NCBI RefSeq assembly: GCF_024355225.1
Contig: NZ_VCNH01000008.1
Location: 1,798,001 to 1,862,000 of the forward strand
Direction: 5' to 3'
Origin: Roseovarius sp. M141
Lineage (GTDB): Bacteria; Pseudomonadota; Alphaproteobacteria; Rhodobacterales; Rhodobacteraceae
Length of the DNA stretch: 64,000 bases
Position numbers and translations under genes: made by a program
Notes under the pieces: generated by a model
Seen by the model: the letters and a program-made list of their open reading frames with translations, nothing else
The model's database searches: none
Told to the model about the DNA's origin: nothing
Part shown: one piece after another, positions 1 through 24,694 of the stretch
Layout: the number at the start of each line of letters is the position of its first letter
How positions within the stretch are numbered: the stretch's first letter is position 1

Positions 1-447
1 GATGCAGCGCCAAGGATACTGCTCATTGTTGGTCACTTCGATGCGTTCATCGGTTCCGATGACGACCTCTGGCATCATCGGGGCCATCTCGGACGCCGCG
101 CGGCGTTCTTCGGGGGTGGCATAGGTGCCCCAATAGGCATCCAGCGCGGTCGCGGACGTGCTGGCCGCCCTGGGCATTGCCATGGCTTCGGGCTTGGGTT
201 GGCTGATCGCCTCGACCGCACCTTCGGCGGCGGCGGCCTCGCCCTTGCCCATTTCGCCGTAGGACGGCTCGAACGCCATGGTCGCGGAGGCGGTCACGCG
301 GCTGGACACCGGGCGCTGTGCCTCTTCGGCGCTTAGCGTCATATTCTCGCGTGCCTGCGCCTGCATGGTTTCTGCTTGGGCCTGCCCGCTTTCGATCAGC
401 GCGCTCAGCTCCTTGGCGGTTTTTCCTTTGGTCTTTGCTGCGGACAT
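1..447 (-). CDS. V8-like (glutamyl endopeptidase type) serine protease, N-terminal part only
   Basis: The first 149 codons of a protein that continues past the left edge of the window. The ATG at 447 follows a clear AAGGAG ribosome site. Residues 1-120 are low-complexity and rich in Ala, Glu and Gln, with no signal peptide. The visible end reads VVIGTDERIEV followed by YPWRC, which matches the start of the mature domain of V8-like trypsin-fold proteases: an Ile-Gly new N-terminus, then a Tyr-Pro-Trp segment. The catalytic triad lies outside the window, so activity cannot be judged. It is the last visible gene of the minus-strand operon that encodes the four related modular proteins, 15 bases after the 1065-residue one. 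The long N-terminal region could be a propeptide or a tether to a partner (inference). Confidence 0.7.
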   Translation of the reverse strand, partial: MSAAKTKGKTAKELSALIESGQAQAETMQAQARENMTLSAEEAQRPVSSRVTASATMAFEPSYGEMGKGEAAAAEGAVEAISQPKPEAMAMPRAASTSATALDAYWGTYATPEERRAASEMAPMMPEVVIGTDERIEVTNNEQYPWRCI

Positions 448-462
448 TTCAATATCTCCTTG

Positions 463-3400
463 TTAATTGGACAGATGCTCACCCAGGAAAATGATCGTCT
501 CTTCCGAGGTGACGGGGGCAAAGCGCTTGACCGAATGGTCAGTGCCTAGGGTTGTGATCTGGAAGGAATATGCCTGCCGGGTCCGGTCGAACCGGGCGAT
601 GCGCAGCCGTTGGGGCTGCAACAGCGCACCCTCAAAAGTCAGATCCTCTTCGCGCCGATAATCGTTTATCCGATCCTCGTAGATGACCTTGACGAACATC
701 TTCTGCAGCGCCGCGCCGTCGAAATTCGGAAAGAACTCGACGATCAGGGCGTCATCGAAGGGATCGTTGACAGTGACGGAGGGCACCCGTGTCGCCGTGC
801 TTTCCACCTCGCGCACCGATCCGTCGACCAGATGGTGGCGCAGCGTGTAGGAAAAGTCGCGCCGCTCGGGATCGTCCAGCCGCAGTTTCCAGCTCTGTTC
901 GGGCGAGTCCGGGCGCACCACGATCGTCCTGTCGCGCTGCCAGTCGCCGCCATCATAGCGCAGCTGCACCTCGGTATGGCGGATCATGCCTCGGTCCAGC
1001 TCTCCGGGCAGGACCTTGATGTCGACAAAGCCGAAATGGTTGAACGGGTTGATCAGAAGTGTGCGGTCCAACGTCGTCTCGGGCGGCATCGTGTAACTGA
1101 GTGCGCGACCGTCCCAGCCCGACATCGGGTCGAAATGGTATTGCAGCGTGATCCGGTAATCGAGGTCGTGCGCATCGTTCATGAAAAACGTATGGCTGTC
1201 GGATGTCGGCCCGCTCCGCAGAAACGACATATCGCGGCGTTTCAGGGTCGCGGGATCGTTGCGCGATCCGTATTCGATCTCCACATCCGTGGCCATCAGG
1301 CCCAGCTGAGCGTAGTCGACAGGGTTGTCGACCTTGATCTCGATCTTGCGGAAGAACGGGCTGTCGAGGTCGACGGTGATGAAATGCGGCGGGCCGGACA
1401 GATCCTTGGCCATCATGGCGATGGCACCCTGCGGGGCATGTTTGCGCTGAACCGCCTGCTGTCGGTTGTAGTGCAGCGTCAGCTTCTTGTCCTCGATCTG
1501 CTCAATCTTTTGCAGCTTGAAGGCCAGCTTGATGCCCATGTCGGGGATGTCGGTGGGAAAGGTGATGGCTGGTCCACCACCACCGGGGGTCGGTGCAGGA
1601 CCGCCGGGCGTGGGTCCACCGGGTGTGGGTCCACCGGGCGTGGGACCGCCGGGTGCAGGTCCACCGGGCGTAGGGCCGCCGGGCGTGGGACCGCCGGGGG
1701 TAGGGCCGCCGGGTGTGGGACCACCGGGGGTAGGTCCGCCGGGTGTCGGTCCACCGGGGGTCGTGCCGCCGCTGCGGACTACGGTTCCGGTGATCGTCGT
1801 GGCGGGGGCGGTGTCGCCCTGGCGTGATATCTCGGCGACTCGATCGCTGGCGTCACGCACGCGTCCGGCATCGCGGGCGCGGGTGAAGCCGTGGGCAACT
1901 GTCGCGCCGATACTGACGCGTGATCCGATGATGCCCTGAGCCACATCGACCCGGCGTTGTGACAGTTCCCGGTCGGCGGTTTCGCGAGCCGAGTCCCCTT
2001 CAAAGCTTGCGTGACCGTCGATCAGCACCTCGGCGGTGGATTGCGCGATCCAGCTGCGCAGGGCGTCCGCGCCGGTGGACCCGTCCGCAGCGCGGGTGCG
2101 CATGAATTGCACATCGGGGGGAAACGGCTGATTGTTCAGATAGTTGGTATAGGCGCGGCTCGGCGGTGCCACGTTCCAGCCACCCGCTGCGGGCTTGTCG
2201 ACATCGAACATCAACCGAAAAGTCTCCGTCTGCCCCACGGCTGCCGGATAGAGGGCCTGGAAGGCGATCGTTTCGCCCGGCCCCACGTCGAAGCGCACCG
2301 CGCCCAGCCCGTCAAGGGCGCGCGATTGGCCAGCAACCTCGACCGCATTGGGCCGCCCGCGTCCCGCAAATGTCAGGGTCACCTCGCGCCCGTCGCTCGC
2401 CTGCGCCATGCTCACATCGCGCCCTCCATGGGGTACGTCGATCGCTTTTGTCATCGTCGCCTGGGCAAGCGTTTCGGCAAGAACCTCGGACGTCGCAATC
2501 GCGTCCATGCCGGCGCCGGAAAACAACAGCATCGCTGATGCCGGGCTTTCGCCGCCGCCGGGGGCTGGTGTCGTGCCGCCGCCGGGTCCCGGCCCTCCCG
2601 GTGAGGGTGCGCTGCCGCCACCCGGAGCCGCAGGTTCGCCGGGCGTATCACCGGGTGCTGCAGGCCCGCCGGGTGTGTCACCGGGTGCTGCAGGTTCGCC
2701 TGGCGTGTCACCGGGCGCTGCTGGTTCGCCGGGCGTGCCACCGGGTGCCGCGGGTTCGCCGGGGGTCGTCGCCCCGCCCGGTGTGGTTGCGCCGCCCGGT
2801 GCCTGCGTACTGGGTCTGATCGGTGCCAGTGTCGGCTCGAACCATTGTTTCAGGAGATCGTTCTTGAAAAAATCCAGCGCCCAGTTTTCTTTGTCCGACT
2901 TGTCTTCGGCGGTTGAAAAATTGATCACCTTGATTTCGATGACGCCGTCCTGAATCAGCTTTTCAAAGGCAAGGTCAATGCCCGCCTCAAGGTAGACAGG
3001 CACACCGCCGATCACCGCCCCGGCCGTCAGGTCGATCCCCATGCTGAGATGGTCGAAGATGCGTTTGTAATTGGCCTTGATTTCCACGTCCAAGGCGGGG
3101 TTCAGCCCGGTATAGATGAAGCTGTAGATCACGCCGACCGGCGCGCCGCCCTGCTTGAACGCCTGATCCAGGATCACCGCGCCTTCCTGGCTGAGGGCAA
3201 GGCTGAAAAGCGCGTTGTTATCGCCGCTCATCGACGGAATTGTGGCGCCCAGTATCTTTTCGACCGCCCGGAACCCGCCCGGAGGGGCCGCGTCGGCGGT
3301 GGTGCCGCCTCCACCTTCGAGATCGAGCGCAACAATGCGCACCGAACCTTCGTCCAGCGGCACGGGCGACAAGATCGGCGGGCCGTCGGACACCTGCGCC

Positions 3401-3660
3401 AGCTTGGACAGGATCTTGCGCTTGGTTCGATTGTCGAGCTTCAGAACCGATTCCAGCGTCAGGAACCCGCCACCCTTCATGTCGCTGTCAGCCGATGCCG
3501 CGCGATAGGTGATCAGCGTGAACTGGGGCACATTGCCGGGGTCACGGTGCCCAAGCGTGGGCGCGGGTCCGGGCAGGTACCAGAACTGATCCGGGCGGAT
3601 GTGATCGCCAAAGACGGTGACGCCCTCGATAGTCTGAACCTTGGAGTCGAACTGGAGCAT
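463..3660 (-). CDS. Large modular protein: quartet-family N-domain, Gly/Pro linkers, OmpA-like domain, beta modules
   Basis: 1065 residues, not a family I can name. In order: an N-terminal domain (about 1-270) shared with the next two upstream genes, opening with an IEGVTVFGD-type strand and carrying SGDNNALFSL near residue 150; a Pro/Gly/Ala linker (about 285-375); a middle region whose second half looks like an OmpA C-terminal domain (GHASFEGD, then LSQRR and DRVAEI); a second linker of about a dozen TPGGP-type pentapeptides; and about three beta-rich modules of roughly 90 residues to the end. No signal peptide or membrane segment is seen. The start ATG follows GAGG. It lies in a minus-strand operon, 39 bases after the 767-residue paralogue and just before a V8-like protease. 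A structural or binding role is inference; the OmpA-like part suggests contact with peptidoglycan or a related matrix. Confidence 0.8.
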   Translation of the reverse strand: MLQFDSKVQTIEGVTVFGDHIRPDQFWYLPGPAPTLGHRDPGNVPQFTLITYRAASADSDMKGGGFLTLESVLKLDNRTKRKILSKLAQVSDGPPILSPVPLDEGSVRIVALDLEGGGGTTADAAPPGGFRAVEKILGATIPSMSGDNNALFSLALSQEGAVILDQAFKQGGAPVGVIYSFIYTGLNPALDVEIKANYKRIFDHLSMGIDLTAGAVIGGVPVYLEAGIDLAFEKLIQDGVIEIKVINFSTAEDKSDKENWALDFFKNDLLKQWFEPTLAPIRPSTQAPGGATTPGGATTPGEPAAPGGTPGEPAAPGDTPGEPAAPGDTPGGPAAPGDTPGEPAAPGGGSAPSPGGPGPGGGTTPAPGGGESPASAMLLFSGAGMDAIATSEVLAETLAQATMTKAIDVPHGGRDVSMAQASDGREVTLTFAGRGRPNAVEVAGQSRALDGLGAVRFDVGPGETIAFQALYPAAVGQTETFRLMFDVDKPAAGGWNVAPPSRAYTNYLNNQPFPPDVQFMRTRAADGSTGADALRSWIAQSTAEVLIDGHASFEGDSARETADRELSQRRVDVAQGIIGSRVSIGATVAHGFTRARDAGRVRDASDRVAEISRQGDTAPATTITGTVVRSGGTTPGGPTPGGPTPGGPTPGGPTPGGPTPGGPTPGGPAPGGPTPGGPTPGGPTPGGPAPTPGGGGPAITFPTDIPDMGIKLAFKLQKIEQIEDKKLTLHYNRQQAVQRKHAPQGAIAMMAKDLSGPPHFITVDLDSPFFRKIEIKVDNPVDYAQLGLMATDVEIEYGSRNDPATLKRRDMSFLRSGPTSDSHTFFMNDAHDLDYRITLQYHFDPMSGWDGRALSYTMPPETTLDRTLLINPFNHFGFVDIKVLPGELDRGMIRHTEVQLRYDGGDWQRDRTIVVRPDSPEQSWKLRLDDPERRDFSYTLRHHLVDGSVREVESTATRVPSVTVNDPFDDALIVEFFPNFDGAALQKMFVKVIYEDRINDYRREEDLTFEGALLQPQRLRIARFDRTRQAYSFQITTLGTDHSVKRFAPVTSEETIIFLGEHLSN
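1600..1768. repeat. 15-bp minisatellite encoding TPGGP/APGGP pentapeptides
   Basis: About a dozen tandem 15-bp units with wobble-position variation, in frame inside the 1065-residue gene. It encodes the second Gly/Pro linker, between the OmpA-like domain and the C-terminal beta modules. Such arrays can change length by slippage without breaking the frame. Confidence 0.85.
2632..2768. repeat. 30-bp minisatellite encoding the first Gly/Pro/Ala linker
   Basis: Imperfect tandem 30-bp units coding for a TPGEPAAPGD-type decapeptide, with related degenerate units on both sides. It lies in frame in the 1065-residue gene, between its N-terminal domain and the OmpA-like region. It differs in unit length and sequence from the array at 1600-1768, so the two arrays arose separately. 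Confidence 0.8.
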
Positions 3661-3699: not shown

Positions 3700-6003
3700 C
3701 TATGTCTGTGATGAAAGCCGCAGCCGCAGCGGGCTTTCGACGGTTTGCCCGGTCGGTCGTTGCCGACTCATGCCATTGGTCAGAAATTCGGTGACGGTCA
3801 GTTGATAGGTGCTCGCTTCGCTGCGGGCATAGTCGTATTCGAAAAATCCGCTTTGACCGGGTCCGTCGAAGGTAAAGGAGCTTTGGACGGACATGCCGAA
3901 ATCGGGATCCTCGAACGCCAGATCGGCCTGCACCCGCGCCACCCCCTTGGCGGCGAAATCCTCGTCCGGGGACAGAACCTGGATGACGCGGTGCGCCTTC
4001 ATGTCCAGCCGGATGAAGATGGTCGATTCCTGCGTATCGGACATCGGAATGTCGATCTGGCGATTGTCCGTCATCAGAATTTTGGCCGAATAGCGGATGA
4101 AACGCTTGTTCTCGTCCTTGAGGTTGACGACGAAGCTTTTGGGAATGCGGTCCGTGTCGCTGTTCATGAAGAATAGCGATTTCGTTTCGAACAGGTCGTT
4201 GGCGATATCCTGATAGCTGAGTTCCACGAACACCATCGACACCAGATCCCACGGCACCGCCGGCACCACGGTGACCGAGCGCGACTTCGGCACGGGATTG
4301 CGGATCGTCAGCAGTTCCTGATCCAGCGTCGTCCAGTCCTCGACCCGGTCACGGTTGTCGGCGGCGTGATATTCCCTGCGGATCTCATAGCTATCCAGAT
4401 CAACGTTCATCCGAAACCGTTTCCAGGTGAATTCGGGGTCTTCACTGGTCAGAAGGAAGCTGTCGTTCAGATCGATTTCATTGTCCGGGTCGCGGTAACG
4501 CAACTGGACGCCGACGCTTGGGTAGCGATCCCAAGGGAAGTTTGCCGCGCCCACGACGATGTCGTCGATGAAATACAGCTTCTCGTTTTGCGGCGCGACC
4601 TCGAATTCATCACGCAGGGTTTCGCGGCGCGGGGAGTCGATCCGGGCAGGGCGTTCGGCGGCGTCGACGCCGCGAAAGCTGACGGTGTAGTCATAGGCCA
4701 CCGGGCGTTTCATCACCCCGTTTTCCAGAACGCTGTTCCAGCTTTTGGTGGTGTTGGGCGCCTCTTTCGTCAGGCGCATGGTTTCCACACGGCTGCCGTA
4801 GTCCAGCGACACGTTCAGGGATTCGACCTGATCGGCGTCAAAATCCACCAGCGCATGGGCCGTGGCTGTTCGGCGCTTGAACCAATCGCTGTCCAGATCG
4901 ACCTCGGTCACGAAACGCGACATATCGACCTGCCCGTCGGCATCCCGCAGCAGCCGGAACAGCCCTTGCATGTGCGCCTGCGGATAGATCGAGCGCCGCA
5001 CGGAAATGCGTTCGTTCATCGTCATGTTGATCGACTTGCGGTCGATCCGGGTCATGTCGAATTTCTTGTAGCCAAAGGACGCCACCCCGGCCCAGCCGCC
5101 GGTCGCGATCAGCAGGCCCACCTGCGAGGCGGCCTTGGCCTCTTCGTCCCATCCGTCTTCTCCGGGATTCATCGGGTCGACGCTGGGTTCAAAGAAGGCT
5201 TGCGTGACCATATCCTTGAAATCGTTGATCGCATCTTCGCGGCGCCCGATCCAGCTTGCGTCCTCTTCGCCTTCGGGCAGGAAAGTGTCGACCTCGATAT
5301 TGATCGCGCGGTCTTCTATCAGCTTGTCGACCACAGACCCGATTTCGACCGAGGAGAACAGCACCGTCGCGGAAAAGCTTTCTTCGAAATGCGTCTGCAC
5401 CCGGTCCCAGTCGGCGCTGACCTTGATCTGAAAGGCGGGGCGCAATGCGAAGAAGTGCAGCGAATAGATGACACCCATCGGCATCATCTCGCCGCGCATC
5501 GACGCCTCGATCAATTGCACGCCATCGGCATCCAGCTCGACCGAGAAGATCGCGTTGTTGTCCCCGTAGAGCGCAGGCTTGGAGTGGTGGGCCATCTTCA
5601 CCACAAAGCGTTTTTCGGCCGTATCTGCATCCGCGTCGTCGGCGGGCGCGTCATCGCTGGCGGCACCGAGGATGATCAGCTTGACCTCGCCATCCTCGAA
5701 ACTGATCGGTGACATGATCGGGTTGTCGCGTAACTGATACATCCGCTTGAGTTCGCTGCGCACCTCCTCAAGGCGTTCGGGTTCTATCGCCAGATCGACG
5801 CTGAAGTTCAGGAATCCGCCAGCCCCCGCCGCCCCGCGATACTTCAGAAGTTGCAATTGCGGGATGTGCTGGCCCACGACCGGGTCAAAGACCGTGGTCA
5901 GCTCGGGCATCGCGGGCGCACAGTGAAACACGTCTTTGCGTTCGTGATCCACAAAGACGGTGATACCCTTGATGATGTGGAATGGCGGTTTTAAGAACAG
6001 CAT
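3700..6003 (-). CDS. Quartet-family modular beta-rich protein (767 aa)
   Basis: Second-largest member of the local family. The N-terminus has a hydrophobic strand ending IKGITVFVDH (about 10-20), a GGFLNFSV strand near 62-69 and the family motif YGDNNAIFSVEL near 146-157, followed by a GVIYSLHF segment. A short Ala/Gly-rich stretch near 305-330 separates this from at least four C-terminal modules of about 90 residues. Each module has a VxLxYxD-type strand, an acidic turn and a Tyr-rich strand. There are no Gly/Pro linkers, signal peptide or visible catalytic motif. The ATG start has GGAG about 11 bases upstream. It sits between two paralogues on the same strand, with gaps of 30 and 39 bases. 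Function unknown; a binding or scaffold role is inference. Confidence 0.8.
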   Translation of the reverse strand: MLFLKPPFHIIKGITVFVDHERKDVFHCAPAMPELTTVFDPVVGQHIPQLQLLKYRGAAGAGGFLNFSVDLAIEPERLEEVRSELKRMYQLRDNPIMSPISFEDGEVKLIILGAASDDAPADDADADTAEKRFVVKMAHHSKPALYGDNNAIFSVELDADGVQLIEASMRGEMMPMGVIYSLHFFALRPAFQIKVSADWDRVQTHFEESFSATVLFSSVEIGSVVDKLIEDRAINIEVDTFLPEGEEDASWIGRREDAINDFKDMVTQAFFEPSVDPMNPGEDGWDEEAKAASQVGLLIATGGWAGVASFGYKKFDMTRIDRKSINMTMNERISVRRSIYPQAHMQGLFRLLRDADGQVDMSRFVTEVDLDSDWFKRRTATAHALVDFDADQVESLNVSLDYGSRVETMRLTKEAPNTTKSWNSVLENGVMKRPVAYDYTVSFRGVDAAERPARIDSPRRETLRDEFEVAPQNEKLYFIDDIVVGAANFPWDRYPSVGVQLRYRDPDNEIDLNDSFLLTSEDPEFTWKRFRMNVDLDSYEIRREYHAADNRDRVEDWTTLDQELLTIRNPVPKSRSVTVVPAVPWDLVSMVFVELSYQDIANDLFETKSLFFMNSDTDRIPKSFVVNLKDENKRFIRYSAKILMTDNRQIDIPMSDTQESTIFIRLDMKAHRVIQVLSPDEDFAAKGVARVQADLAFEDPDFGMSVQSSFTFDGPGQSGFFEYDYARSEASTYQLTVTEFLTNGMSRQRPTGQTVESPLRLRLSSQT

Positions 6004-6033: not shown

Positions 6034-8232
6034 CTATTGGAACGGATCGAGGATCAGCGCCTGATCGGAGACCGTTTCCGGCCCAACCGTTTTTGTCGTC
6101 TGGTCTGTCATGAAAAACTGAACCGAATAGCTGTACTCAATCAGATCCTTGTCCTTCAGTTCGATCTTCCAGGTCTGGGACTCCGGTTTTGTCGGGCTGA
6201 ACACGTAGGATTTGCGTTCGTTCACATCGTTGTCGGGGTCTTGATAATGCAGCGACACCCGCGCGAGCCGCACCGACGCCCAGTCGATCAGGTCGGTGAT
6301 CACCATCACCTCAAGGAAGTCCTCGATCGGGGCCGGCACCAGAATGGTGTTGGTTTCGGCGACGGTCAGGGGGATATCCTCGCTGGTGCCATCCTTGTAG
6401 GCGACCGAAGCGCTGTAGCGGACAACGCCGCCGGTCTGCGAGATTGCCGGGAACGACCATTCAAAGAACGGGTTGCCCGCGTTCAGCGCCACGCTTTTGG
6501 TCAGGTGGTAGTCGTTCTCGTCATCGTCATAACGCAGGTCCATGAAGATGTTCTGGATCCGCGCGGCAAAGTCACCGACGCCGCGCACGCCAATGTCGAT
6601 GGTGGCGGCGAACACGTCATTTATGAACAGATTGGATGCGCGCGACTCCTGCGGGTCTCCCTGCACCTCGCTGCCGTTCTTCATGAAATATTTTACGTGG
6701 TATTTGTAGTTCTTCCGCATCGGTTCAAAGATGACTTCCTGAATCTTGTGCGTCGGATTGGCCTGGCTCAGTTGGAACTGATCCTCGATCCGGTCGACCC
6801 CGCGGTCCTCGTAGCTGAAGCTGACAAGCGCGCGGTCGATGTCGTCCCAGTTCAGATCGCCGCTGGATATATCGATATCCAGAATGCCGATATCATCGAC
6901 ACCGATGATCAGGTTGCCCTCGTCGGTGGTGATATCCTCGGACTGATATTTCCTGCTGTGGCCGGTGTAGTTGATCTGGATGGAATGGGTGTAGAACCAG
7001 TTGTCCGCCTCGACGAAAGCGCCCAATCTGCCGATCTTGTCGGGATCGCGCAGCACCACTTCGCCTTCGGGCTCGCCCGGGACCATGTTTGCCATGGGGC
7101 GGTTGTTGTACTTCAGCTTGACCTCGACCGAATGGATCGGGAGTTCTTTGAAATTGGCATTTGCGGAGACGTTCACACGAAGCTGGCGGAAGAACGGATC
7201 GTCCAGGTCAATCTCGCGGAAGTAGTCCCCCCATTTATAATTGTTGCCGTCGGCGTCCTTCAGCGTGGTGATGCCGGGCAGGGTGCCGTTGGGGTTGACC
7301 CGCCACTCTATCGCCTGGCGTTCCTTGTAGGTCAGCGTAAAGCTGGAAATCTTGGTCGACGTGATGTCGCGGGTTACGTGCTCAATCTTTTTCGGCTTTT
7401 TCCGTTGGTCATCGGGGACGGGCGCGATCGCTTCGATCATCCGCCGCTCGGCCCCGTCTTCCAGCGCGCGCATCGCCCAGTCACGGATTTCGCCGCGGAC
7501 CTTTTCGTCGGTAACCATACCCCAGTCGGCCCAGAAACGCATGGCCTCGGACGAGATTGCCCGTTCGCGTATCGTCTCGCGGTAGCTGTCATGTTTCCAG
7601 GCTGGCCAATGCTTGTTCACATCGATGGTTTGGTAAAATCTGTAGAATTCGGTCGCATGGAACGAGGCCTTGACCTTGACCAACGGCAGGGCTGCGGGCG
7701 TGACAAGCGAATACTCGACACCAAAGGTCGGTCCCTGACCTTTCATCGCCTGCTCAAAGAAGGTGATGCCCTCGGGGGTCAGCTCCACTCCGAACGTGGC
7801 GGAGTTGTCGCCATAGAGCGATGGCTTGCCCGAATTCTGGATCTTGTCGACAAATGTGCCGTCGGACCCCGCAATGATCAGGCTGCAGGTGCCGTCCGTA
7901 TAGGTGGGCGAGGCCAACTTGACCTTGGGGATCGGGTCGATGTTGCGCCGCCGCGCCTCGGCGTTGACCTGTGCCTGCAATGCATCCTTCAGCGGTTGCA
8001 CCTTGTCGTCTGGCAGCACGAAGGCCACGCTGAAGATCAGGAAGCCGCCGCCGACCTTGCCGTCTTCGCGGTCGATCGGCATCCGGTATTTGTAGATTCC
8101 CATATCCAGCTTGCCCTCGGGCGTCTTGCGGAACGAACAGCGCGACGGCAACGGGTAGTGGGTCTCGATCTTCTTGCTGTCGCCATAAACGGTGATGCCT
8201 TCAATGGTCTGGACCTTGTCGATCTGAAGCAT
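6034..8232 (-). CDS. Quartet-family modular beta-rich protein (732 aa)
   Basis: The clearest example of the family layout. The N-domain starts MLQIDKVQTIEGITVYGD, very close to the start of the 1065-residue protein (MLQFDSKVQTIEGVTVFGD). It has GGGFLIFSVA near 61-70 and YGDNSATFGVEL at 140-151. Residues from about 290 to the end form four or five repeated beta modules with patterns such as LKYNN, FSYEDRG, LRYDDDEND and LHYQDPDND, each followed about 30-40 residues later by a Tyr-x-Tyr strand. The acidic loops (DDDEND, DPDND) resemble calcium- or ligand-binding turns of beta-sandwich folds, which is inference. GAGG lies upstream of the ATG, and the preceding gene ends 3 bases away, so the genes are probably translated together. 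Confidence 0.8.
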   Translation of the reverse strand: MLQIDKVQTIEGITVYGDSKKIETHYPLPSRCSFRKTPEGKLDMGIYKYRMPIDREDGKVGGGFLIFSVAFVLPDDKVQPLKDALQAQVNAEARRRNIDPIPKVKLASPTYTDGTCSLIIAGSDGTFVDKIQNSGKPSLYGDNSATFGVELTPEGITFFEQAMKGQGPTFGVEYSLVTPAALPLVKVKASFHATEFYRFYQTIDVNKHWPAWKHDSYRETIRERAISSEAMRFWADWGMVTDEKVRGEIRDWAMRALEDGAERRMIEAIAPVPDDQRKKPKKIEHVTRDITSTKISSFTLTYKERQAIEWRVNPNGTLPGITTLKDADGNNYKWGDYFREIDLDDPFFRQLRVNVSANANFKELPIHSVEVKLKYNNRPMANMVPGEPEGEVVLRDPDKIGRLGAFVEADNWFYTHSIQINYTGHSRKYQSEDITTDEGNLIIGVDDIGILDIDISSGDLNWDDIDRALVSFSYEDRGVDRIEDQFQLSQANPTHKIQEVIFEPMRKNYKYHVKYFMKNGSEVQGDPQESRASNLFINDVFAATIDIGVRGVGDFAARIQNIFMDLRYDDDENDYHLTKSVALNAGNPFFEWSFPAISQTGGVVRYSASVAYKDGTSEDIPLTVAETNTILVPAPIEDFLEVMVITDLIDWASVRLARVSLHYQDPDNDVNERKSYVFSPTKPESQTWKIELKDKDLIEYSYSVQFFMTDQTTKTVGPETVSDQALILDPFQ

Positions 8233-12077: not shown

Positions 12078-12129
12078 CCGGCACATACCCCTCGCCCATT
12101 CCGTGAAACCAGCAACCAAGGAGTTTGAC

Positions 12130-16200: not shown

Positions 16201-16458
16201 CGCATTGAGGGTTTGCGCAATCATCGCCGCACTCAGGAATTCGCGCAGCGCCCGGCGGCGGCAATCGGGGGTGACCATCCAGCGATACCCCCCGGATTGC
16301 AGGTGTTCCGTCGATTGCAGCGACAGAACCCGAAGCGCCCCATCACGGTATTGGCGCGCGCCGGGGCCCAGATCGACGGAGTTCAGCATCGCCAGCGGAT
16401 CAAAACCGCCTGAAAGGCTTGCGTTGCGCAGGATCAGGGTGTTGAGCGTTGTATTCAT
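13258..16458 (-). CDS. STAND-like P-loop NTPase with N- and C-terminal helical regions (1066 aa)
   Basis: An ATP/GTPase of the signal-transduction (STAND) type. The Walker A motif GAGGIGKS lies at 208-215 after PLLLT; a Walker B-like strand IAMFFDSF lies near residue 335-343, and a GLGAVSGARLLEHC segment fits the helical domain that follows STAND cores. Residues 1-190 precede the NTPase and contain a probable interaction or effector-associated region. Residues about 560-1066 are mainly helical without repeats I can name; STAND proteins usually keep sensor or superstructure repeats there. The start overlaps the stop of the trypsin-NTPase gene by 4 bases, so the two are translationally coupled. 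By family behaviour it would act as a nucleotide-driven switch for the coupled proteases; that is inference. Confidence 0.75.
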   Translation of the reverse strand: MNTTLNTLILRNASLSGGFDPLAMLNSVDLGPGARQYRDGALRVLSLQSTEHLQSGGYRWMVTPDCRRRALREFLSAAMIAQTLNAAPALEKGDVLGQILRTILRKEIPAVPERRAEETDDAYLARQLAHASATYDAAQFAEVVPALDTKWIESVRNAADLRIKTLQRRQDIQIVLPTKLYGRGHYKRILSRHLRALEDDPRPLLLTGAGGIGKSALVASLIHGWEGRADAPMIIFLDFDRRQLVGGSPVQMVHEVLRQLSVGLANKKLSAEKKEALIEFLRDVRRQLPALDTSGGERTYSSQFGRMLSAIFPRFQEPAAKPLHMMNIAMFFDSFEAVNRQGGGVVRTLMDIENSLRDNGLTNLRTIVSGRAAPLPEPDLTEAFGDEARRIDIGGLGAVSGARLLEHCDKAGVFRTVQERQTASDALGGHPLALRVLAKFAASHEGGATSLLEDLAHDPRFKAEFAQVYLYERILQRISDEDVRALAHPGLVLRQLNKDMIRLVLAVPCFGAPITSDRAADLMTRLRDEYWLVEEEPGDFPARHRSDLRRLMLPGLFAGPRPSDSGPTAARKTTLRNNARAVCVAAADLFEFGPPRGDAAHVWWRVMPPGVRQVEAAYYRALGTDLEPSFDLDYANRMHTILGEDLDTLPLVWVARVKALRGEPLSAAEWDQLPPNLRENAEAQTFKRMKVQGVGMGRVGAKTAPRKKAADVSGAGTTPEPSGIAADATPQHLAREIGRGFLLGQFDRASSLGPRYFDARRSEGLSVENGDDFWGTAVWQSILLAGALEGTGWEDDGHLSDLPPPMPDLYAAAKGASTGASDSCADALIRALENPDGWHAPDRMPVRANRLAGRQIMEVLAMSGARRKEPFVLSARAFCLAVSPTDPSGVPPGEPPDLPGDLRRLLNPLYGAAPVTLGAMQEIYRLNEPIAIYPEELMKMSDPARVLFADMLRGLSPELYEPTGAFLRDQSPARVGEMVAHLTKDPGTHWPQDLRSDRKIPYREEEFGTVIETADQCGLLAGLLDLMAQDDARVAPLLRMHNLIGEWFFARDPRQGADNQHTVARA

Positions 16459-18588: not shown

Positions 18589-21363
18589 TTAAAACGCGTC
18601 GGTGTCGAACACGCCGTCCCCGACCGCCCGCACGGTATCTAGATCATGCGCCAGGTTCATCGTCAGCGTCGAGCCGCCAAAATGCAGCCCGCACAGCGCC
18701 ATGCCCCCGTGAAGCGAGATGATGGCAGACCCGGAATTGCCCGCGAATGTCGTGGCATCATGCGAAAACGCCCATCCAGCCGTGTCATTGGCGACCGACC
18801 CCGGGCGACTCATCATCATGCCCGGGCTGATGTATTTCACCCCGAATTCGTCCCCATACAGTTCTCCTACACGGTCCCAGAACTGGAGTGCCTGCTCGGC
18901 GTCGGTGGGCGCCTGTTGAAAGCCCGGTCGTGCGGGATAGCCGACCACCATCAGGTTTTCCAAACCCGCGTCGGTTGTTGTCGTGGTTACCCCCATCGGG
19001 GCAGGCAGATCCTGCTGCCCGTTGTTGGTTTCGACCCCGACAATGGCCATGTCCAGATTGGTCAGGACGACACGGCGGCCGATGCGGTTGCGTCCGGCGG
19101 TGATGACATGCGTAATCTCGAACCGCGTGGACTCATCGGTCGCATCGGGGTCGAAGATGATCGAGGCACGGCGGCGCAGGCTGAACGCTTGCTGACCGGG
19201 GGCGGCGGGCAGGGGATCGGCAAAGACATCCAGCACGTGGCGGTTCGTCATCACCCGCCCGTCGGCCAGCACAAAGCCTGTGCCCGCATGCACCCATCTG
19301 CCCATCGGATCGGTGACGTCGATCCGCCCGACCGCATCGACCTTTGGCCGCCATTTGTTGCGCGCGGGCATCAGATTTCCGGCCCAGGTACCGATATTGG
19401 GATTGGTCGCCAGATCGCCATCGTTGTCGGTGATGCGCAGCGCCGGACGCCCGGTCAGCCGTACCAGCGCCTCTAGGGCAAAACGCGCCTCGCCCATATC
19501 GTGCGGCATCGGGCGGTCGGGTTCGGCCACCTCAACCAATGCCCGTTCTATGCGCGACAAGGCTTCATCCTGAAGCCCGCTATCAACGCGGGTGGACCGC
19601 GCACGCGCGGTCTTCAGCACGCTTTCCGCGGTCGCCATGATGGTGTCGGTTCCCTCGGTACGGATGCGGGCAACGGCATCCTCGGTGGACAGCGCGGCGG
19701 CAGACTCGAGTCCGGCCCCGCGTGACGCGCCAAGGCGCTTCAGCGCATCCGACAAGGAGACGGGCGGCGTAGCGGGGGCCACGACCGCAGCCGGGGCCGG
19801 CAGATCACTCGGATCGCCCAGATCGATCAACTGCGCCAGACGCGGCGACGGCATCGGGCTGACCGCCGTTTCCAGCGCAGGACCTTGCGCAGGGTCGCGC
19901 CGGAGCGCGCGATCAAATGTCAGAAACTCTGCCTCTGACTGGTGGCGGGCGAAATCGGACCCGGTGCCGCGCATCTTCACTTCCGGCCCCGCCGTTTCGG
20001 TCCCGAGACTGTCGCGTCCGGGGATTTCGGCCAGCGACAGACCAAGCAGCGCCTGCGCATCGACGATGCCCGGTCCCATCTGCGAGACGTCCCAGCCGAT
20101 TGGGGTATGGCAACTGGCCTGAAGCGCTGCGTGGAAAAGATGCTGTACCACAGCATTGCCGCGCTTGAGCGCTTCGGCCCGCACCGCGTCTACGCCGAAG
20201 TGTTCCAGCCAAAGGGCCGCAATCCCCGCCGTCTGCGCCACGGCATACGAGGTGCCCTGACCGCGCGGATCGATGCGCGCCAGATCCTCGGGTGTGGGCG
20301 TCTGACCGGCCGGTCCGGCCAGCCTGCGTGCCACATGCACATTCTCGCCCGGCGCCGAAATATCGACCGCCGCACCCCGGCAGGAGCCTTTCCAGCGCTT
20401 CATATTGTTGTCGACCGCCGCCACCGCGATGATGTTTCGATCCCAGCCCGGATAAGTAACGACGCGCACGCAATTGCCCGCCGCCGCCAGCACGATCATG
20501 TTGGCGCGCACCGCCCGGACGACCGCACGGCGCAGAGCAGAGGTGGAAAACGGCCCGCCAAGGCTCATCGTTACCACATGGCACCCGGTGAGGCGGGCGT
20601 GATCTATGGCGCGGGCCACGGCCGTGCCGCCGCCCAGAACCACGCGGTCGACACACCGCACCGGCACGAGGGTCGCCCCCGGCGCGGTCCCGCTGATGAC
20701 ATGGCCCGGACGGCTGATGACTACGCTTGAGGTTGCCGTGCCATGCCCGGGTGAGCCCATCGACGTCAGCAGCGGATCGGTTGGATCGGGCGTGCCGGCA
20801 ATCATGTCAAACCCGCTGGCCTTATCCAGACCTTCGGATAGCTCATCATGTGCGGCCACACCGGTATCAGGCTGGCCTACGCGAATGCCCTGACCCGTGA
20901 CGCCGAACTGCGCCCAAGCCGCATCTACCTTCATCAGTTTGATCGCCCAGTTCGCCTCGGCAGGCGACGGCGCATCCGAGGAACAGAAAGCGTCGACTAT
21001 GGCGCCAACGCCTTCGACCCCGGGGGCTGTCGTTTCGTTATCGACGAAAGAGGGATCTATATCGGGCGTGCAGGAGACAAGCGCCATGGCGTCGACCAAT
21101 TGATCGGCCATCGTGAACAGATAATCAGAGGATTGTTCCCTGATGACACCGGGAAACTGAAGGATCAGCAAAGCGGGGTCTTCATCCGAATACGCAAACA
21201 GATCGAAACCCTCGCCGCCCAAAAGCGTAATCAGGCGCTGGCGCTCTGCGTCAATCTTCGGGATACCGGGATATTCCAGCGTAAAACGCAGTATTTCGCT
21301 TGGCAATGCTTCGCTGGCAGTGTGCGTGCCAACCTGCGCGGCGGCTTTGAGAAGTTCCAACAC
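18589..21363 (-). CDS. Double protease: subtilisin (S8) domain plus trypsin/V8-like (S1) domain
   Basis: 924 residues from the GTG at 21363, which has GGAG 9 bases upstream; a TTG at 21420 would add 19 residues but has no comparable site. Residues about 155-395 are an S8 protease with Asp166 (QPDTGV), His207 (PGHGTA), oxyanion Asn297 (AAAGN) and Ser372 (GTSYA). After a 280-residue mostly helical spacer, residues about 685-900 form a trypsin-like protease with His709 (TNRHV), Asp771 (NLDMAIV) and Ser877 (GNSGS). Both triads are complete. No signal peptide is present, which is unusual for subtilases and points to an intracellular role. It is the first gene of the three-gene protease/NTPase operon. 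A cascade in which one domain activates the other is a reasonable guess only. Confidence 0.88.
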   Translation of the reverse strand: MLELLKAAAQVGTHTASEALPSEILRFTLEYPGIPKIDAERQRLITLLGGEGFDLFAYSDEDPALLILQFPGVIREQSSDYLFTMADQLVDAMALVSCTPDIDPSFVDNETTAPGVEGVGAIVDAFCSSDAPSPAEANWAIKLMKVDAAWAQFGVTGQGIRVGQPDTGVAAHDELSEGLDKASGFDMIAGTPDPTDPLLTSMGSPGHGTATSSVVISRPGHVISGTAPGATLVPVRCVDRVVLGGGTAVARAIDHARLTGCHVVTMSLGGPFSTSALRRAVVRAVRANMIVLAAAGNCVRVVTYPGWDRNIIAVAAVDNNMKRWKGSCRGAAVDISAPGENVHVARRLAGPAGQTPTPEDLARIDPRGQGTSYAVAQTAGIAALWLEHFGVDAVRAEALKRGNAVVQHLFHAALQASCHTPIGWDVSQMGPGIVDAQALLGLSLAEIPGRDSLGTETAGPEVKMRGTGSDFARHQSEAEFLTFDRALRRDPAQGPALETAVSPMPSPRLAQLIDLGDPSDLPAPAAVVAPATPPVSLSDALKRLGASRGAGLESAAALSTEDAVARIRTEGTDTIMATAESVLKTARARSTRVDSGLQDEALSRIERALVEVAEPDRPMPHDMGEARFALEALVRLTGRPALRITDNDGDLATNPNIGTWAGNLMPARNKWRPKVDAVGRIDVTDPMGRWVHAGTGFVLADGRVMTNRHVLDVFADPLPAAPGQQAFSLRRRASIIFDPDATDESTRFEITHVITAGRNRIGRRVVLTNLDMAIVGVETNNGQQDLPAPMGVTTTTTDAGLENLMVVGYPARPGFQQAPTDAEQALQFWDRVGELYGDEFGVKYISPGMMMSRPGSVANDTAGWAFSHDATTFAGNSGSAIISLHGGMALCGLHFGGSTLTMNLAHDLDTVRAVGDGVFDTDAF

Positions 21364-21755
21364 AATCGACCACTCCAGAAATTTGAAATATTGAAGAAAG
21401 GTACTAAAAAGGGAACGCAAATACTAAAAGATGAGAAAAGCGTAGCATAATTTGTGCATTCGGCAAACCCGGCGCAGTTTGAAAACTTATCTCAGTCTGA
21501 AACGGCTATCCCGGCCTGCTATCGACCAAATTTGAAGCCAGAGCCTGAAGTGTTTCAAAGAAGCGCTGGGCGGCGCAAAACCAAAGGTGGGTCGCACTGC
21601 AATTGGGTCCGGCGCACTCGTTCCTCTGTGATGGATGTTTGCGGCCAGCTTTGCCAGCGACCTTAGCATCGTGCAACGGGTGACGGCTGAGAATTAGCCG
21701 GATTCGCGTTATTGGTGTAAGCTGGGGGTGGCCGCATTGGCCGTCAGAGGCTGAT
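21364..21755. other. Divergent intergenic region between protease operon and CARDB gene
   Basis: About 390 bases. The first 90 (21364-21450) are AT-rich, overlap a possible TTG-extended start of the double protease and probably hold its promoter. The remainder is of average composition and shows no gene I can support; an open frame on the minus strand across 21506-22102 lies antisense to the CARDB gene and is a shadow. Confidence 0.5.
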
Positions 21756-24083
21756 GTGGGATCCCGATCTGCAAATCGTAACATGGCCACAAGGCGCAAT
21801 CCGATGCCCGTCGACCGACTTAACATCCGCCAGTTTCTACCTGATCGTCGTGCGGTCCGGTGCGCGATCTGCGTCGGGTTGTTCATCTTATGGTTCCCCG
21901 TCTTCGGGCTGGCGCAGACATTGACCGTCGAGATGGCGCGCGGCCCGCTGGAAGACGGGCGGCTGCGCGAGGCGATCATGCTCTCGACTGACTGGATGCG
22001 GGCGGGCGAGCGCACCGGGCTCGACATTCGCGGCGTCACCCTTCGCCACGCAAACCAGCCAGAAACCACGCGAAAAACACAGCAGAATCTCAAAAAGGCC
22101 AAATCTCTTCTCAGTGAAAGAGGGGGCGCATCCGGGAGAATTCAGCTCATTGTGTTTTTTGACCCGCAGCGGACAGCAAGGCTGGCCCAGTTGGTGGCGG
22201 CGAACCTGCGGACGCTGGGGCTACAGCCGCGTCTGGTACCCCTACCCGAGGGTGCCCGCGCAAAGATGCAGCAGGTCATGCGGTCGCGCGCCGATATCTC
22301 TGATGCGGAGCCGGGATTCATCGTGCTTACATGGAACTCTGCCGAGATCCTCAAGCCTAATCCGCGCGGCCCCGAAATTGATCTGCCGGAGCGCCTGAAG
22401 CCCGATGATGCGGCTCCGGAACGGTTTCCGGATCTGGTCGTTTCGCAATTCCACGTGGATTACGATCCCGGCGCCAGAGTTCTGACGGTGACGGCGTTGG
22501 TGGAAAATATCGGGCGGGGCGCGGTCTCGGCGCGCTTTGCCGTGTCCTTTCCAGACAGCACCGGCGTGATCGCAGACCAGCTGGGGCGTCACATCGCGGG
22601 ACCATTGGCGCCCGGGGCACAGCAATGGGTGGAAACCCGGTTTCGCGTTGACGATTCGATTCTGGAGGGGCGGACAGTGCGATTGCGCGCGGTTGCGGAT
22701 GCCGGATCAACCATCCGGGAGTCCAATGAGCGCAACAATTACAGCATCGAACGAAGTGTGTTTCTGGAACGGTTGGCGCCGCCCATGCCCGATTTCGTCA
22801 TCGTGGCGCTTGACCCCGCCTATGACCGTCTGACGCGGCGCCTGTCTGTTCAGGTTTTCGTGCGCAATGTGGGCAAGTCACCATCCCGACCGTCGAAAGT
22901 ACGGATTGCGGAGACGCAAAAACATTTCGGATTTCCCGAAATCGCAATGCCCGCAATCGCGCCGGGCGGTAGCGCGGTCGGCGTGGCCGAGGTCATTGTA
23001 CCCGAAACCGCATTGGGCGAAGTTGCGATGCTGGTGGCTATGGCAAATGCGGACAGAAAACTGCGCGAAACTAGCTTCGACAACAACAGCTTTGGGCCGG
23101 TCCGCGTGGCGCTGAATGCGCCACCCGCGCCGCAGCGGCCGGATCTGCTGCTAAGCGGTTTGTTTGCCGAACATGACGCGGTGCAAGGCCATGTCAAGCT
23201 GCGGGTAGAGGTGATGAACGGCGGGCCGGTTCCCTCGGTGGCGACGCGCGTGCGGTTTACCGAGCTGCGCAACCAGATGCCCGATGTCGACATGACGTTG
23301 CAGGCATTGGCGCCCGGGCAGCGGGCTATCGTGTCTGCCGAGACGCCGCTGGCGCCGTCGCCCGAAGCCCGCGAGATGACGTTCGTGGCAAGGGGCGATG
23401 TCGATGGATATGTCGACGAGAGCCGCGAAGACAACAACGAAAGCCGCGTCGGACCGCTGCGCATTCCGGCGACTTCTTCTCTGTTGCCGGACCTTGAGGT
23501 TACCGCGCTTGCGGCAGGACAGGCCCGGATGGGCGCACCGCTGGCGGTAACGGCGCAGATCGTGAACGCGGGCGATTTCGGCAGCGCGGCAACCGAGGTT
23601 GTGTTGACCGTCGCCGGGACAGATCCGGTCGTGGCGCCGCTGCCGACCCTGCGCCCCGGTGAAATGTACAAACTGCGGCTCGAATTGCCCGTTCAGGCCG
23701 CGCTGTTTGGCAATACGGTTGAGGTTTCTCTGGAAGCCGACCCAGAGCGGCGGATCGGTGAATATACGGTTCAGAACAACCTGCGCCGAATGAACGTGGC
23801 GCTGCGTGTGCCGATTTTGCCTTGGGCTGGGCTGGCTGGGGCCGGGCTTGTGGCGTTGCTTGTGATCGGTCGCGTGATACTGCGTGGTGGCCCGCCTGAG
23901 CCGCAAGCAAAGATCCTTGCGCATCTTGTCCGTCTGCAACCCAGCGCCCATGCCGGACACCAACGCGCAGATCCCGAGCCGGGCAGTTCCGGGGTCGAGT
24001 TTGAAGTCTCGCTGCGCCCGATACGCGGGTCCAGAAGCGTGACGGTGACGCGCCTTGCAGACACGGGGGAACCAGAAACATGA
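21756..24083 (+). CDS. Membrane-anchored protein with four CARDB-like modules
   Basis: 775 residues from a GTG preceded by AGAGG; an ATG at 21804 is the other candidate. A long N-terminal signal sequence has its hydrophobic core at CVGLFILWFPVFGLA, with probable cleavage near AQ. After a region of about 170 residues come four CARDB-type beta-sandwich modules starting near 225, 344, 461 and 578. Each opens with PDLxV or a variant, and the first three close with an ESNERNN / ETSFDNN / ESREDNN turn, typical of the family. A single membrane helix (about 687-709, LAGAGLVALLVIG) leaves a cytoplasmic tail of about 65 residues. So the modules face the periplasm. It overlaps the next gene by 4 bases. 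CARDB modules often bind surface polymers or other proteins; a sensor or adhesin role here is inference. Confidence 0.8.
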   Translation: MGSRSANRNMATRRNPMPVDRLNIRQFLPDRRAVRCAICVGLFILWFPVFGLAQTLTVEMARGPLEDGRLREAIMLSTDWMRAGERTGLDIRGVTLRHANQPETTRKTQQNLKKAKSLLSERGGASGRIQLIVFFDPQRTARLAQLVAANLRTLGLQPRLVPLPEGARAKMQQVMRSRADISDAEPGFIVLTWNSAEILKPNPRGPEIDLPERLKPDDAAPERFPDLVVSQFHVDYDPGARVLTVTALVENIGRGAVSARFAVSFPDSTGVIADQLGRHIAGPLAPGAQQWVETRFRVDDSILEGRTVRLRAVADAGSTIRESNERNNYSIERSVFLERLAPPMPDFVIVALDPAYDRLTRRLSVQVFVRNVGKSPSRPSKVRIAETQKHFGFPEIAMPAIAPGGSAVGVAEVIVPETALGEVAMLVAMANADRKLRETSFDNNSFGPVRVALNAPPAPQRPDLLLSGLFAEHDAVQGHVKLRVEVMNGGPVPSVATRVRFTELRNQMPDVDMTLQALAPGQRAIVSAETPLAPSPEAREMTFVARGDVDGYVDESREDNNESRVGPLRIPATSSLLPDLEVTALAAGQARMGAPLAVTAQIVNAGDFGSAATEVVLTVAGTDPVVAPLPTLRPGEMYKLRLELPVQAALFGNTVEVSLEADPERRIGEYTVQNNLRRMNVALRVPILPWAGLAGAGLVALLVIGRVILRGGPPEPQAKILAHLVRLQPSAHAGHQRADPEPGSSGVEFEVSLRPIRGSRSVTVTRLADTGEPET

Positions 24084-24694
24084 CCGAGACCATGACACCC
24101 ATTCCGGCCACGGCAGAGACGCAGACCCTGGCCAAATTCTACGCCGCCGATAGTGCGGGGTTTTCCGCGCTCGAACCCGACCCTGCGTTGAAAAAGGCGC
24201 TCGAGGAGGACGCGGGCCGCATGGGATCGGGGTTGATCGAGGCGCTGACCTTCGCAGCCGCGCTGGCGGTCCTTTACGAGGCGCTGGACGTGGCGCTGTT
24301 GGACATCCTGAAATCGGGCTGGCAGACCATGGCCGAGTTGCAGGCCTATCGTGACCCGCAAAAACACCCGCCCGAAGAAAAGAGCTGGGTCAAGCTGGGA
24401 CGGCACAAGATCACGTCGGCCCACGAACCCAAGGTCGAGGTATTTTTCAACGGCAAACGTCTGGGCCAGCTGGACTTTGACGCCAAGCTGACCCTGAACG
24501 TAACCGACGCCAGGCTACAGGTGCAGGGGGGGCGTATCTGGGTGGTGACGGGCCCCGTATTTGAAGGCGAAGCATCCCTGTCTTACAAGGGGTTTGCACT
24601 GCTGAAGAAAAAGGCCGAGCGGTTCACATTCCCCAGCGGCGTCACTTTCGAAGACGGCGTCCCAATCATCCCTATGCCGGTCTCGGTGAGCTGA
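24080..24694 (+). CDS. Uncharacterised partner of the CARDB membrane protein (204 aa)
   Basis: Starts inside the stop of the CARDB gene (ATGA overlap), so it is almost certainly co-translated. Residues 1-100 are mainly helical, with an Ala/Leu-rich stretch near 50-75 (LTFAAALAVLYEAL, then DVALLDILKSGW) that could be amphipathic or membrane-associated. Residues 105-204 are predicted beta-rich (KVEVFFNGKRLGQL, LTLNVTDARLQV, GRIWVVTGPVF). No signal peptide or catalytic motif. I do not recognise the family. The coupling suggests that it contacts the cytoplasmic tail of the CARDB protein (inference). Confidence 0.7.
   Translation: MTETMTPIPATAETQTLAKFYAADSAGFSALEPDPALKKALEEDAGRMGSGLIEALTFAAALAVLYEALDVALLDILKSGWQTMAELQAYRDPQKHPPEEKSWVKLGRHKITSAHEPKVEVFFNGKRLGQLDFDAKLTLNVTDARLQVQGGRIWVVTGPVFEGEASLSYKGFALLKKKAERFTFPSGVTFEDGVPIIPMPVSVS

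What the first reader, a model, noticed from the sequence alone, without database searches (positions are those of the whole stretch)
1..24694. A 24.7-kb island that may be one undescribed multi-protease/NTPase system
Ten of the twelve genes belong to families seldom found together: V8-like protease, subtilisin-trypsin fusion, trypsin-NTPase fusion, STAND NTPase, M15-like peptidase, amidase, astacin-like protease, CARDB membrane protein and a local family of large beta-rich proteins. Operons are tightly coupled, face each other in divergent pairs and share domain types. STAND NTPases linked to trypsin-like proteases are a known feature of bacterial conflict and signalling systems (established for those families). 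That the beta-rich quartet and murein hydrolases belong to the same system is inference.
Basis: partly seen in the sequence, partly recalled or inferred. Interest (0 to 1): 0.9.

Follow-up and report, generated by a model that had tools for sequence, protein, structure and literature searches.

The report
Composite island with undescribed multi-Ig operon
The stretch is not one machine but several gene sets side by side; one of them is an apparently undescribed group of large repeat proteins plus a prenyl-transferring enzyme, found in very different microbes and sometimes beside proteases and cell-wall-cutting enzymes.

Summary
The genes are there; the "one four-operon system" is not. The island is larger (about 31 kb, running 6.3 kb left of the window) and composite.

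(1) Core: the "quartet" belongs to a set of six related proteins (N-domain plus, in the modelled g3, Ig-like domains) with a DMATS-type prenyltransferase relative. It recurs in 47 loci titled as several phyla, 30 of 47 in the order u3-u4-(g5)-g4-g3-g2. No family passes a Pfam cut-off for the six. In 15 of 47 loci a protease- or effector-like neighbour was identified. An eCIS marker occurs in 22 of 48 carrier genomes, against 18 of 369 Pseudomonadota.

(2) The subtilisin-trypsin / trypsin-NTPase / STAND trio is a separate module, near "System 3" of Kaur et al. 2020. It occurs without the core in five fetched loci, but is present in three of four Rhodobacterales core carriers, abutting the core on a Paracoccus plasmid.

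(3) The M15/amidase/astacin set and CARDB pair show no conserved link to either.

Most likely: a STAND-gated protease switch recruited in Rhodobacterales to control an effector-carrying assembly. Modularity is shown; mechanism is inferred.

The parts
1..447 (-). 5' part of u1, V8/trypsin-like serine protease (351 aa; continues left of the window, L001:14392-15447). The same operon goes on outside the window with u2 (DMATS-type prenyltransferase relative, L001:13058-14038), u3 (829 aa, L001:10520-13009) and u4 (599 aa, L001:8698-10497)
   Evidence: u1 relatives in Paracoccus (4.7e-42), L023 and L062; u2-family profile vs PDB DMATS 2.1e-9
463..3660 (-). g2, core protein: N-domain, Pro/Gly-rich linkers with an insert between them, beta repeats
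   Evidence: no Pfam family at E<=0.1; homologous to g3, g4; insert OmpA E=0.11, below cut-off
3700..6003 (-). g3, core protein: N-domain and, in the model, Ig/FnIII-like domains from 375 to 755
   Evidence: AlphaFold model mean pLDDT 82.9, pTM 0.45; Foldseek/VIA Ig-type strings; 38 relatives aligned
6034..8232 (-). g4, core protein, paralogue of g2/g3
8236..9801 (-). g5, core protein, shorter relative
   Evidence: profile-profile 97.6-98.0% to g2/g3/g4
10214..10852 (+). g6, M15-type peptidase, no signal-like N-terminus
   Evidence: Pfam PF08291 2.1e-16; hydropathy
10902..12077 (+). g7, N-acetylmuramoyl-L-alanine amidase (Amidase_2) with a hydrophobic C-terminal stretch, no signal-like N-terminus
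   Evidence: Pfam PF01510 4.2e-12; PADLOC PDC-M35B 8.9e-6 at 295-385; hydropathy 2.62 at 359
12103..13203 (+). g8, astacin-like metalloprotease with HExxHxxGxxH, no clear signal-like N-terminus
   Evidence: Pfam astacin 0.0062, below cut-off; sequence; hydropathy
13258..16458 (-). g9, STAND/NACHT-type P-loop NTPase
   Evidence: AAA_16 1.8e-6, NACHT 0.0054, both below cut-off; GxGGxGKS invariant in the 7 aligned sequences
16455..18581 (-). g10, trypsin-like protease with an NTPase-like C-terminal half
   Evidence: Trypsin_2 4e-11; AAA_22 over cut-off in one relative, below in others; Paracoccus Par1 1.7e-11
18589..21420 (-). g11, subtilisin (S8) + trypsin-like fusion
   Evidence: Pfam S8 6.4e-25, Trypsin_2 3.9e-10; PADLOC 'nacht' 1.9e-26, 'subtilase' 1.2e-9
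21756..24083 (+). g12, protein with four CARDB stretches and hydrophobic segments, private to this genome in the family sample
   Evidence: CARDB 2.3e-35; hydropathy; 1 of 198 family genomes
24080..24694 (+). g13, small protein of unknown family, coupled to g12
   Evidence: no Pfam hit at E<=0.01, no NCBIfam hit at E<=0.1

Best explanation
The island is a composite. Module A (u4, u3, u2, u1, g2-g5) is a patchily distributed, probably horizontally spread operon. It encodes six related proteins without an evident export signal, built from a shared N-domain and (in the modelled g3) a string of Ig-like domains, plus a DMATS-type prenyltransferase relative. I propose that they assemble into a large prenyl-modified complex that holds or displays enzymatic cargo encoded next to it (here the V8-like u1, possibly also g6-g8) and deploys it against another cell or on lysis of its own. 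Module B (g11-g10-g9) is a free-standing protease-STAND trio that senses a stress or invader and starts a protease cascade. In Rhodobacterales B came to lie near A, and its proteases most likely cut or activate the assembly or its cargo. Modules C (g6-g8) and D (g12-g13) are local additions, C resembling cargo. Shown: gene content, homology, conserved order of A, occurrence of B without A, and their joint presence in three Rhodobacterales (same locus in the window and in Paracoccus, same bin in G624). Inferred: assembly, prenylation target, cargo role, sensing, cleavage by B.
For: Order u3-u4-(g5)-g4-g3-g2 in 30 of 47 loci; g3 relatives 30-52% identical to the window's; core proteins mutually related; Ig-type string in the g3 model. 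u2-family profile matches DMATS prenyltransferases over nearly its length (6zrx 2.1e-9); E85, K161, Y163, E208, Y210 in 22 of 22 and kept in the window's u2. A partner with DxDD in 12 of 12 follows u2 in 10 of 47 loci. In 15 of 47 loci a protease- or effector-like neighbour was identified; also HBL-like (Azospirillum) and PLD/tyrosinase/V8 (Paracoccus). eCIS marker in 22 of 48 carriers vs 18 of 369 Pseudomonadota; all 5 carriers among 169 Lysobacter-family genomes are among the 21 with the marker (p=1.9e-5). B without A in Ruegeria, Rhizobium, Polaromonas, G031, G007; with A in Paracoccus and G624.
Against: No experiment; no fold known for the N-domain (never modelled alone: queue busy). A and B are apart in nearly all carriers: strong STAND-profile matches in 2 of 47 carrier genomes, G624 and G588, and in G588 no g10/g11 relative was seen in the 18 kb fetched. 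In 32 of 47 loci no such neighbour was identified; the scans were hand-picked (10 of 279 flank ORFs) and no background for neighbour type was run. eCIS co-occurrence could reflect shared ecology or taxonomy: without Lysobacter and the own genome it is 3 of 14 vs 17 of 368 (p=0.03), and 3 of 11 alphaproteobacterial carriers have the marker. Physical eCIS linkage was seen once (L026). The g3 tree groups mostly by phylum, so transfer is not proven. The prenyltransferase could serve a small molecule.
Confidence: 0.35

Rival explanations
1. Chance neighbourhood: a defence-island-like site collected an independent protease-STAND trio, the multi-Ig operon and wall hydrolases; there is no functional link between them.
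For: Trio and core each occur without the other in most genomes seen; g6-g13 relatives are absent from the flanks of the 47 core loci; g12 in 1 of 198, g8 in 0 of 10.
Against: The trio abuts the core on the same strand, 129 bp apart, in Paracoccus; G624 carries both; 2 of 3 other Rhodobacterales carriers vs 4 of 197 family genomes, Fisher p=0.002 (tiny numbers chosen after seeing them; bins can be wrong).
Confidence: 0.33
2. Module A is a biosynthetic cluster: the DMATS relative and the DxDD protein make a prenylated, cyclised compound or peptide; the large proteins are scaffold or carriers.
For: Prenyltransferase match and conserved residues; DxDD in 12 of 12 partners, weak match to drimenol synthase E=0.014.
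Against: Six large repeat proteins per enzyme is unlike a small-molecule cluster (recalled); the DxDD partner was not found in the window's operon and in 10 of 47 loci; the neighbours that were identified are proteases and effector-like enzymes.
Confidence: 0.22
3. One reading: all four operons are one obligate system.
For: Shared trypsin domains (g10-g11 1.9e-4, g10-u1 0.016), tight packing, joint presence of A and B in three Rhodobacterales.
Against: No core locus of 47 has g6-g13 relatives in its flanks; g12 in 1 of 198; g8 in none of 10 genomes tested, 9 of them core carriers (the query is known to match).
Confidence: 0.05

Closest known systems
System 3 of Kaur, Burroughs, Iyer & Aravind 2020 (eLife 9:e52696, PMC7159879): multiple peptidase domains coupled to NucA-like endonuclease
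   Same: Trypsin-like proteases in several copies, S8 + trypsin in one polypeptide, a STAND NTPase, EAD1 in relatives (Paracoccus), mostly alphaproteobacteria, wall-degrading partners mentioned (section 32 read whole; other passages)
   Different: No NucA family among the Pfam hits of the island's genes; one relative (Polaromonas) has an annotated DNA/RNA non-specific endonuclease directly after the trio. Trypsin is fused to a second NTPase-like protein (g10), not to the STAND gene; Death-like domain not tested
DMATS-type aromatic prenyltransferases (PDB 6zrx, 6zry, 6os3)
   Same: Profile match over nearly the full length, conserved Glu and Lys-x-Tyr
   Different: Encoded inside an operon of multi-Ig proteins; substrate unknown
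Extracellular contractile injection systems (eCIS; Geller et al. 2021, PMC8213781, passages read)
   Same: Patchy occurrence, toxin- and protease-like neighbours, co-occurrence of the Pvc16_N marker; one contig with Pvc16_N and a tail sheath beside the core (L026)
   Different: No sheath, tube or baseplate family among the Pfam hits of the core proteins; physical linkage seen once
Alpha-2-macroglobulin/complement-like and pilin/adhesin Ig-type strings (Foldseek/VIA)
   Same: String of beta-sandwich domains in g3 375-755

Membership tests
System 3 (peptidase-NucA conflict systems) | trypsin-like peptidase(s) | tested here: met
   g10, g11, u1
System 3 (peptidase-NucA conflict systems) | NucA/Endonuclease NS core domain | tested here: not met
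   No endonuclease family among the Pfam hits of the 16 island genes g2-g13 and u1-u4; annotated beside the trio in Polaromonas. Hence not filed as a member, only as a near variant; the rest of the genome was not searched for NucA
System 3 (peptidase-NucA conflict systems) | optional S8 domain in the same polypeptide as trypsin | tested here: met
   g11; two relatives
System 3 (peptidase-NucA conflict systems) | optional EAD1 fusion | tested here: inconclusive
   Not found by Pfam in g10 and six relatives; present in Paracoccus Par1 and Par2
STAND/NACHT NTPase (g9) | P-loop GxGGxGKS and NACHT/AAA_16 profile | tested here: inconclusive
   P-loop residues invariant in 7 sequences; AAA_16 and NACHT below Pfam cut-off in g9, AAA_16 over cut-off in Paracoccus Par3
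DMATS-type prenyltransferase (u2) | near full-length profile match | tested here: met
   2.1e-9 vs 6zrx, profile positions 9-316 of 321; NCBIfam DMATS in the window's u2 alone only 0.011, below cut-off
DMATS-type prenyltransferase (u2) | catalytic Glu and diphosphate-binding Lys/Tyr (recalled as defining) | tested here: met
   E85, K161, Y163 in 22 of 22 and in the window's u2
DMATS-type prenyltransferase (u2) | ABBA barrel fold | not tested
   structure job not accepted
Class II terpene cyclase (partner of u2, not found in the window's operon) | DxDD motif and cyclase fold | tested here: inconclusive
   DxDD 12 of 12; PDB match E=0.014 over 56 positions only
eCIS | sheath, tube, baseplate, Pvc15/16 genes in the cluster | tested here: not met
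   No such family among the Pfam hits of the core proteins; marker lies 1.43 Mb away in the own genome
Known anti-phage defence system (PADLOC) | complete set of system genes | tested here: inconclusive
   10 island proteins scanned (not g5, g6, g12, g13, u3, u4); g11 matches 'nacht' and 'subtilase' models; system composition not checked
Phage or virus module | relatives in phage/viral collections | tested here: not met
   g3: no match in 50,697 phage records at E<=0.01; viral-contig scan with A5 patterns: 76 stretches matched, none a relative; PHROGs, 7 core proteins, best E 0.082

The most novel reading that the evidence does not exclude
Module A is a new class of cell-to-cell or altruistic effector carrier: six related multi-Ig proteins form a particle that is prenylated (and in some lineages cyclised) by its own enzymes and loaded with exchangeable enzymes. 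It spreads by transfer between distant bacteria, perhaps archaea (one Methanosarcinales bin), and in Rhodobacterales it is triggered by a STAND-gated protease cascade.
Probability: 0.18. Interest if true: 0.92.

Novelty: categorically new. Interest (0 to 1): 0.66.

Why it matters
The label 'categorically new' is meant for module A only: a conserved operon present in isolates titled Pseudomonadota, Actinomycetota and Bacteroidota, with relatives of three of its genes on a cyanobacterial plasmid. No Pfam, NCBIfam or PHROGs family passes for the six large core proteins (PADLOC was run on three of them), and no paper on it was found in the searches made. If it is an effector carrier, it would be a toxin-delivery or programmed-death device not derived from phage tails. 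The protease-STAND trio near it gives a testable case of an inflammasome-like switch with a candidate downstream target. The trio itself is a new variant of a known kind, and the island as one system is not supported.

Tried and rejected
Rejected: the four-operon single system (see rivals); a phage origin of the core; GC-marked foreign origin. Tried without result: NCBIfam on ten and PADLOC on ten island proteins, with no good match for the core proteins included, and PHROGs; PDB sequence profiles for g3, u4 and the N-domain (nothing under E=0.1); EAD1 in g10 and six relatives; OmpA-like insert in g2 (E=0.11 in the window's segment, not listed in the eight relatives scanned, left as a lead); relatives of g7's C-terminal stretch (1 plasmid record). 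Literature searches aimed at the core or its gene combination gave nothing relevant: 1 paper, unrelated; none; 16 papers, 8 listed, fungal or unrelated; none; PubMed Central open licences only, titles and abstract starts seen. The N-domain of g3 has no fold statement: VIA tested mainly 375-755, and neither a separate model nor the viral fold library could be run. Not done: background frequency of protease/effector genes beside random operons; distribution of g6, g7, g13 and u1 in whole genomes; empty-site comparison; NucA in the rest of the genome; Pfam on the other 269 of 279 flank ORFs (10 scanned; two further ORFs outside that list).

Genome counts use the 45 genomes of L023-L067 plus G236 and G460 (plus G000). 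G031 was but is not a core carrier. The second Paracoccus record (SMMA_5) gives almost the same matches and was not counted. G140 and G191 (g9 matches) were not fetched. Of 18 plasmid records with g9 relatives, three were fetched besides the Paracoccus one.
Full report
What is there. The window lies in G000:C8:1798001-1862000. On the right the border is a HAD hydrolase and a phosphonate-type ABC transporter. So the island is about 31 kb, C8:1791698-1822694. Its base composition within the window is like the rest.

Spread of module A. In Rhodobacteraceae it is rare: 1 of 198 family genomes (own) by g4, 3 of 385 class genomes by profile. A scan of the species-genome collection with patterns from g3/g2 gave 47 loci. 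Six-frame HMM detection gives, of 47: g2 45, g3 44, g4 42, u3 38, u4 35, u2 29, g5 28, the DxDD partner 10, u1 2; 30 of 47 show u3-u4-(g5)-g4-g3-g2 in that order. g2/g3 presence is partly by construction, and short contigs lower the other counts. A tree of 41 g3 proteins groups mostly by phylum (8 changes for 7 groups, least possible 6, shuffled mean 17.5). The window sits beside a Rhodobacteraceae bin (93/99), then records titled Actinobacteria and Cyanobacteria (92/97, 91/89), which hints at transfer without proving it. Several records are bins whose titles may be wrong (L068 is titled Kuenenia, yet its contig seems to be that of G460, placed in Alphaproteobacteria). Named isolates include Larkinella, Lysobacter, Hydrogenophaga, Streptomyces and Thermomonospora, and a Calothrix plasmid carries relatives of g4, u2 and the DxDD partner. 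The window, L023, L062 and L067 share a variant order with u3 and/or u4 after g2.

Enzymes of module A. A profile of 22 u2-family proteins matches DMATS-type prenyltransferases in the PDB (2.1e-9, nearly full length); residues recalled as catalytic are invariant and kept in the window's u2. A partner behind u2 in 10 of 47 loci, not found in the window's operon, carries DxDD in 12 of 12 sequences, the motif recalled for class II terpene cyclases; PDB support is weak (0.014).

Neighbours of module A. Caspase-like genes follow g2 in 7 of 47 loci (cluster; one member tested, Peptidase_C14 1.5e-21). Others: CHAP + peptidoglycan-binding (L049, with a relative in L050), GH19 + peptidoglycan-binding (L040, opposite strand, 1.3 kb off), Tle1-like (L039, 1.8 kb off), S8 (L043), Peptidase_C70 (on the L026 contig, 3.3 kb before u3), V8-like u1 (L023, L062). 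Together that is 15 of 47; in the other 32 none was identified. These are hand-picked scans (10 of 279 flank ORFs), and no background was measured. On plasmids: phospholipase D-like, tyrosinase and V8-like (Paracoccus), HBL-like (Azospirillum). On the L026 contig, Pvc16_N (1.1e-30) starts about 1.9 kb downstream of the core, and a tail sheath (1.4e-19) follows; the further genes there look like tube and baseplate genes by eye only.

eCIS co-occurrence. Pvc16_N passes its cut-off in 22 of 48 carrier genomes, own genome included, against 18 of 369 Pseudomonadota, own included; the two samples differ in taxonomy. For carriers titled or placed as Pseudomonadota: 9 of 21 vs 17 of 368, p=1e-6; with Lysobacter counted once, 5 of 16, p=0.001; without Lysobacter and the own genome, 3 of 14, p=0.03. 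In the Lysobacter family, 5 of 169 have the core, 21 of 169 the marker, and all 5 are among the 21 (p=1.9e-5); these five are probably close kin. Ecology or genome size may explain part of this.

Module B, the protease-STAND trio. g11-g10-g9 occur together, in the same order, without core genes in the stretches fetched from Ruegeria pomeroyi, Rhizobium phaseoli, Polaromonas, G031 and G007; G031 and G007 have no g4 relative genome-wide. g9 relatives occur in 5 of 198 family genomes, own included, and in 18 plasmid records. The best known match is System 3 of Kaur et al. 2020 (section 32 read whole): trypsin, S8, EAD1, STAND, NucA. The window's set lacks NucA, so I do not file it as a member. 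A STAND profile over 47 carrier genomes gave two strong matches (G624 2.3e-175, G588 1.7e-38) and eight weak ones (4e-9 or worse), mostly around the P-loop region.

The A-B link. In the window the two modules lie in one island, separated by g6-g8. On Paracoccus pNSM5TCa, EAD1-trypsin, EAD1-NTPase and STAND genes run straight into four core paralogues, and the run ends with tyrosinase and a u1 relative (4.7e-42). In G624 the trio (its S8 gene short in my gene call) lies on a 7.3-kb contig beside a tyrosinase related to the Paracoccus one (6.5e-50), while the core lies on another contig of the same bin. The fourth carrier titled Rhodobacterales, L043/G600, gave no STAND match. So the association is lineage-limited and rests on three cases.

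Modules C and D. g8 is found in 3 of 198 family genomes; the one elsewhere that matches as a whole gene (G018, 4e-30) has no other island relative in 20 kb. It is in none of 10 further genomes, 9 of them carriers. g12 is in 1 of 198. No g6-g13 relatives were found in the 47 core loci. g6, g7, g8 and u1 lack clear signal-like N-termini, which fits cargo or lysis enzymes but proves neither. The catalytic motifs I looked for by eye in g8, g10, g11 and u1 (recalled patterns) are intact.

How it may work. Shown: modularity, conserved core order, prenyltransferase match, A and B together in three Rhodobacterales. Inferred: the core proteins assemble; u2 modifies one of them; neighbouring enzymes are cargo; the trio's proteases activate or release them after STAND sensing. 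I give this chain 0.35, with accretion without a functional link nearly as likely. Interest is carried by module A, which none of the libraries or papers searched here was found to describe.

Noticed in passing
G000:C8:370351-370971: The own genome carries a Pvc16_N (eCIS cap) gene about 1.43 Mb from the window; its surroundings were not examined.
   Followed up: no
L022:2369-4672 (G460:C35): In G460 one frame matches g4 and g2 about equally (3e-98 and 6e-96) and no separate g3 or g2 was found, suggesting recombination between paralogues.
   Followed up: no
window 463-3660: g2 carries long Pro/Gly-rich repeats on both sides of an insert that looks OmpA-like to the eye (Pfam E=0.11, below cut-off); two of eight relatives scanned have collagen-like linkers, one of them over cut-off.
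   Followed up: partly
window 11742-12074: The C-terminal hydrophobic stretch of the amidase g7 matches a PADLOC candidate family (PDC-M35B, 8.9e-6); one plasmid relative in Paracoccus versutus.
   Followed up: partly
L081:4400-8311: In Polaromonas pPNAP01 the trio is followed directly by an annotated DNA/RNA non-specific endonuclease gene, a link to System 3.
   Followed up: partly
L012:12233-14622: Two related genes upstream of an Azospirillum core paralogue, one matching Bacillus_HBL (2.2e-12).
   Followed up: no
L103:12244-14685: On the L026 contig a further ORF, directly after the Peptidase_C70 gene, looks u3-like by eye.
   Followed up: no
L068: Contig titled Candidatus Kuenenia has the length of G460:C35, a genome placed in Alphaproteobacteria; the bin title is probably wrong.
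   Followed up: no
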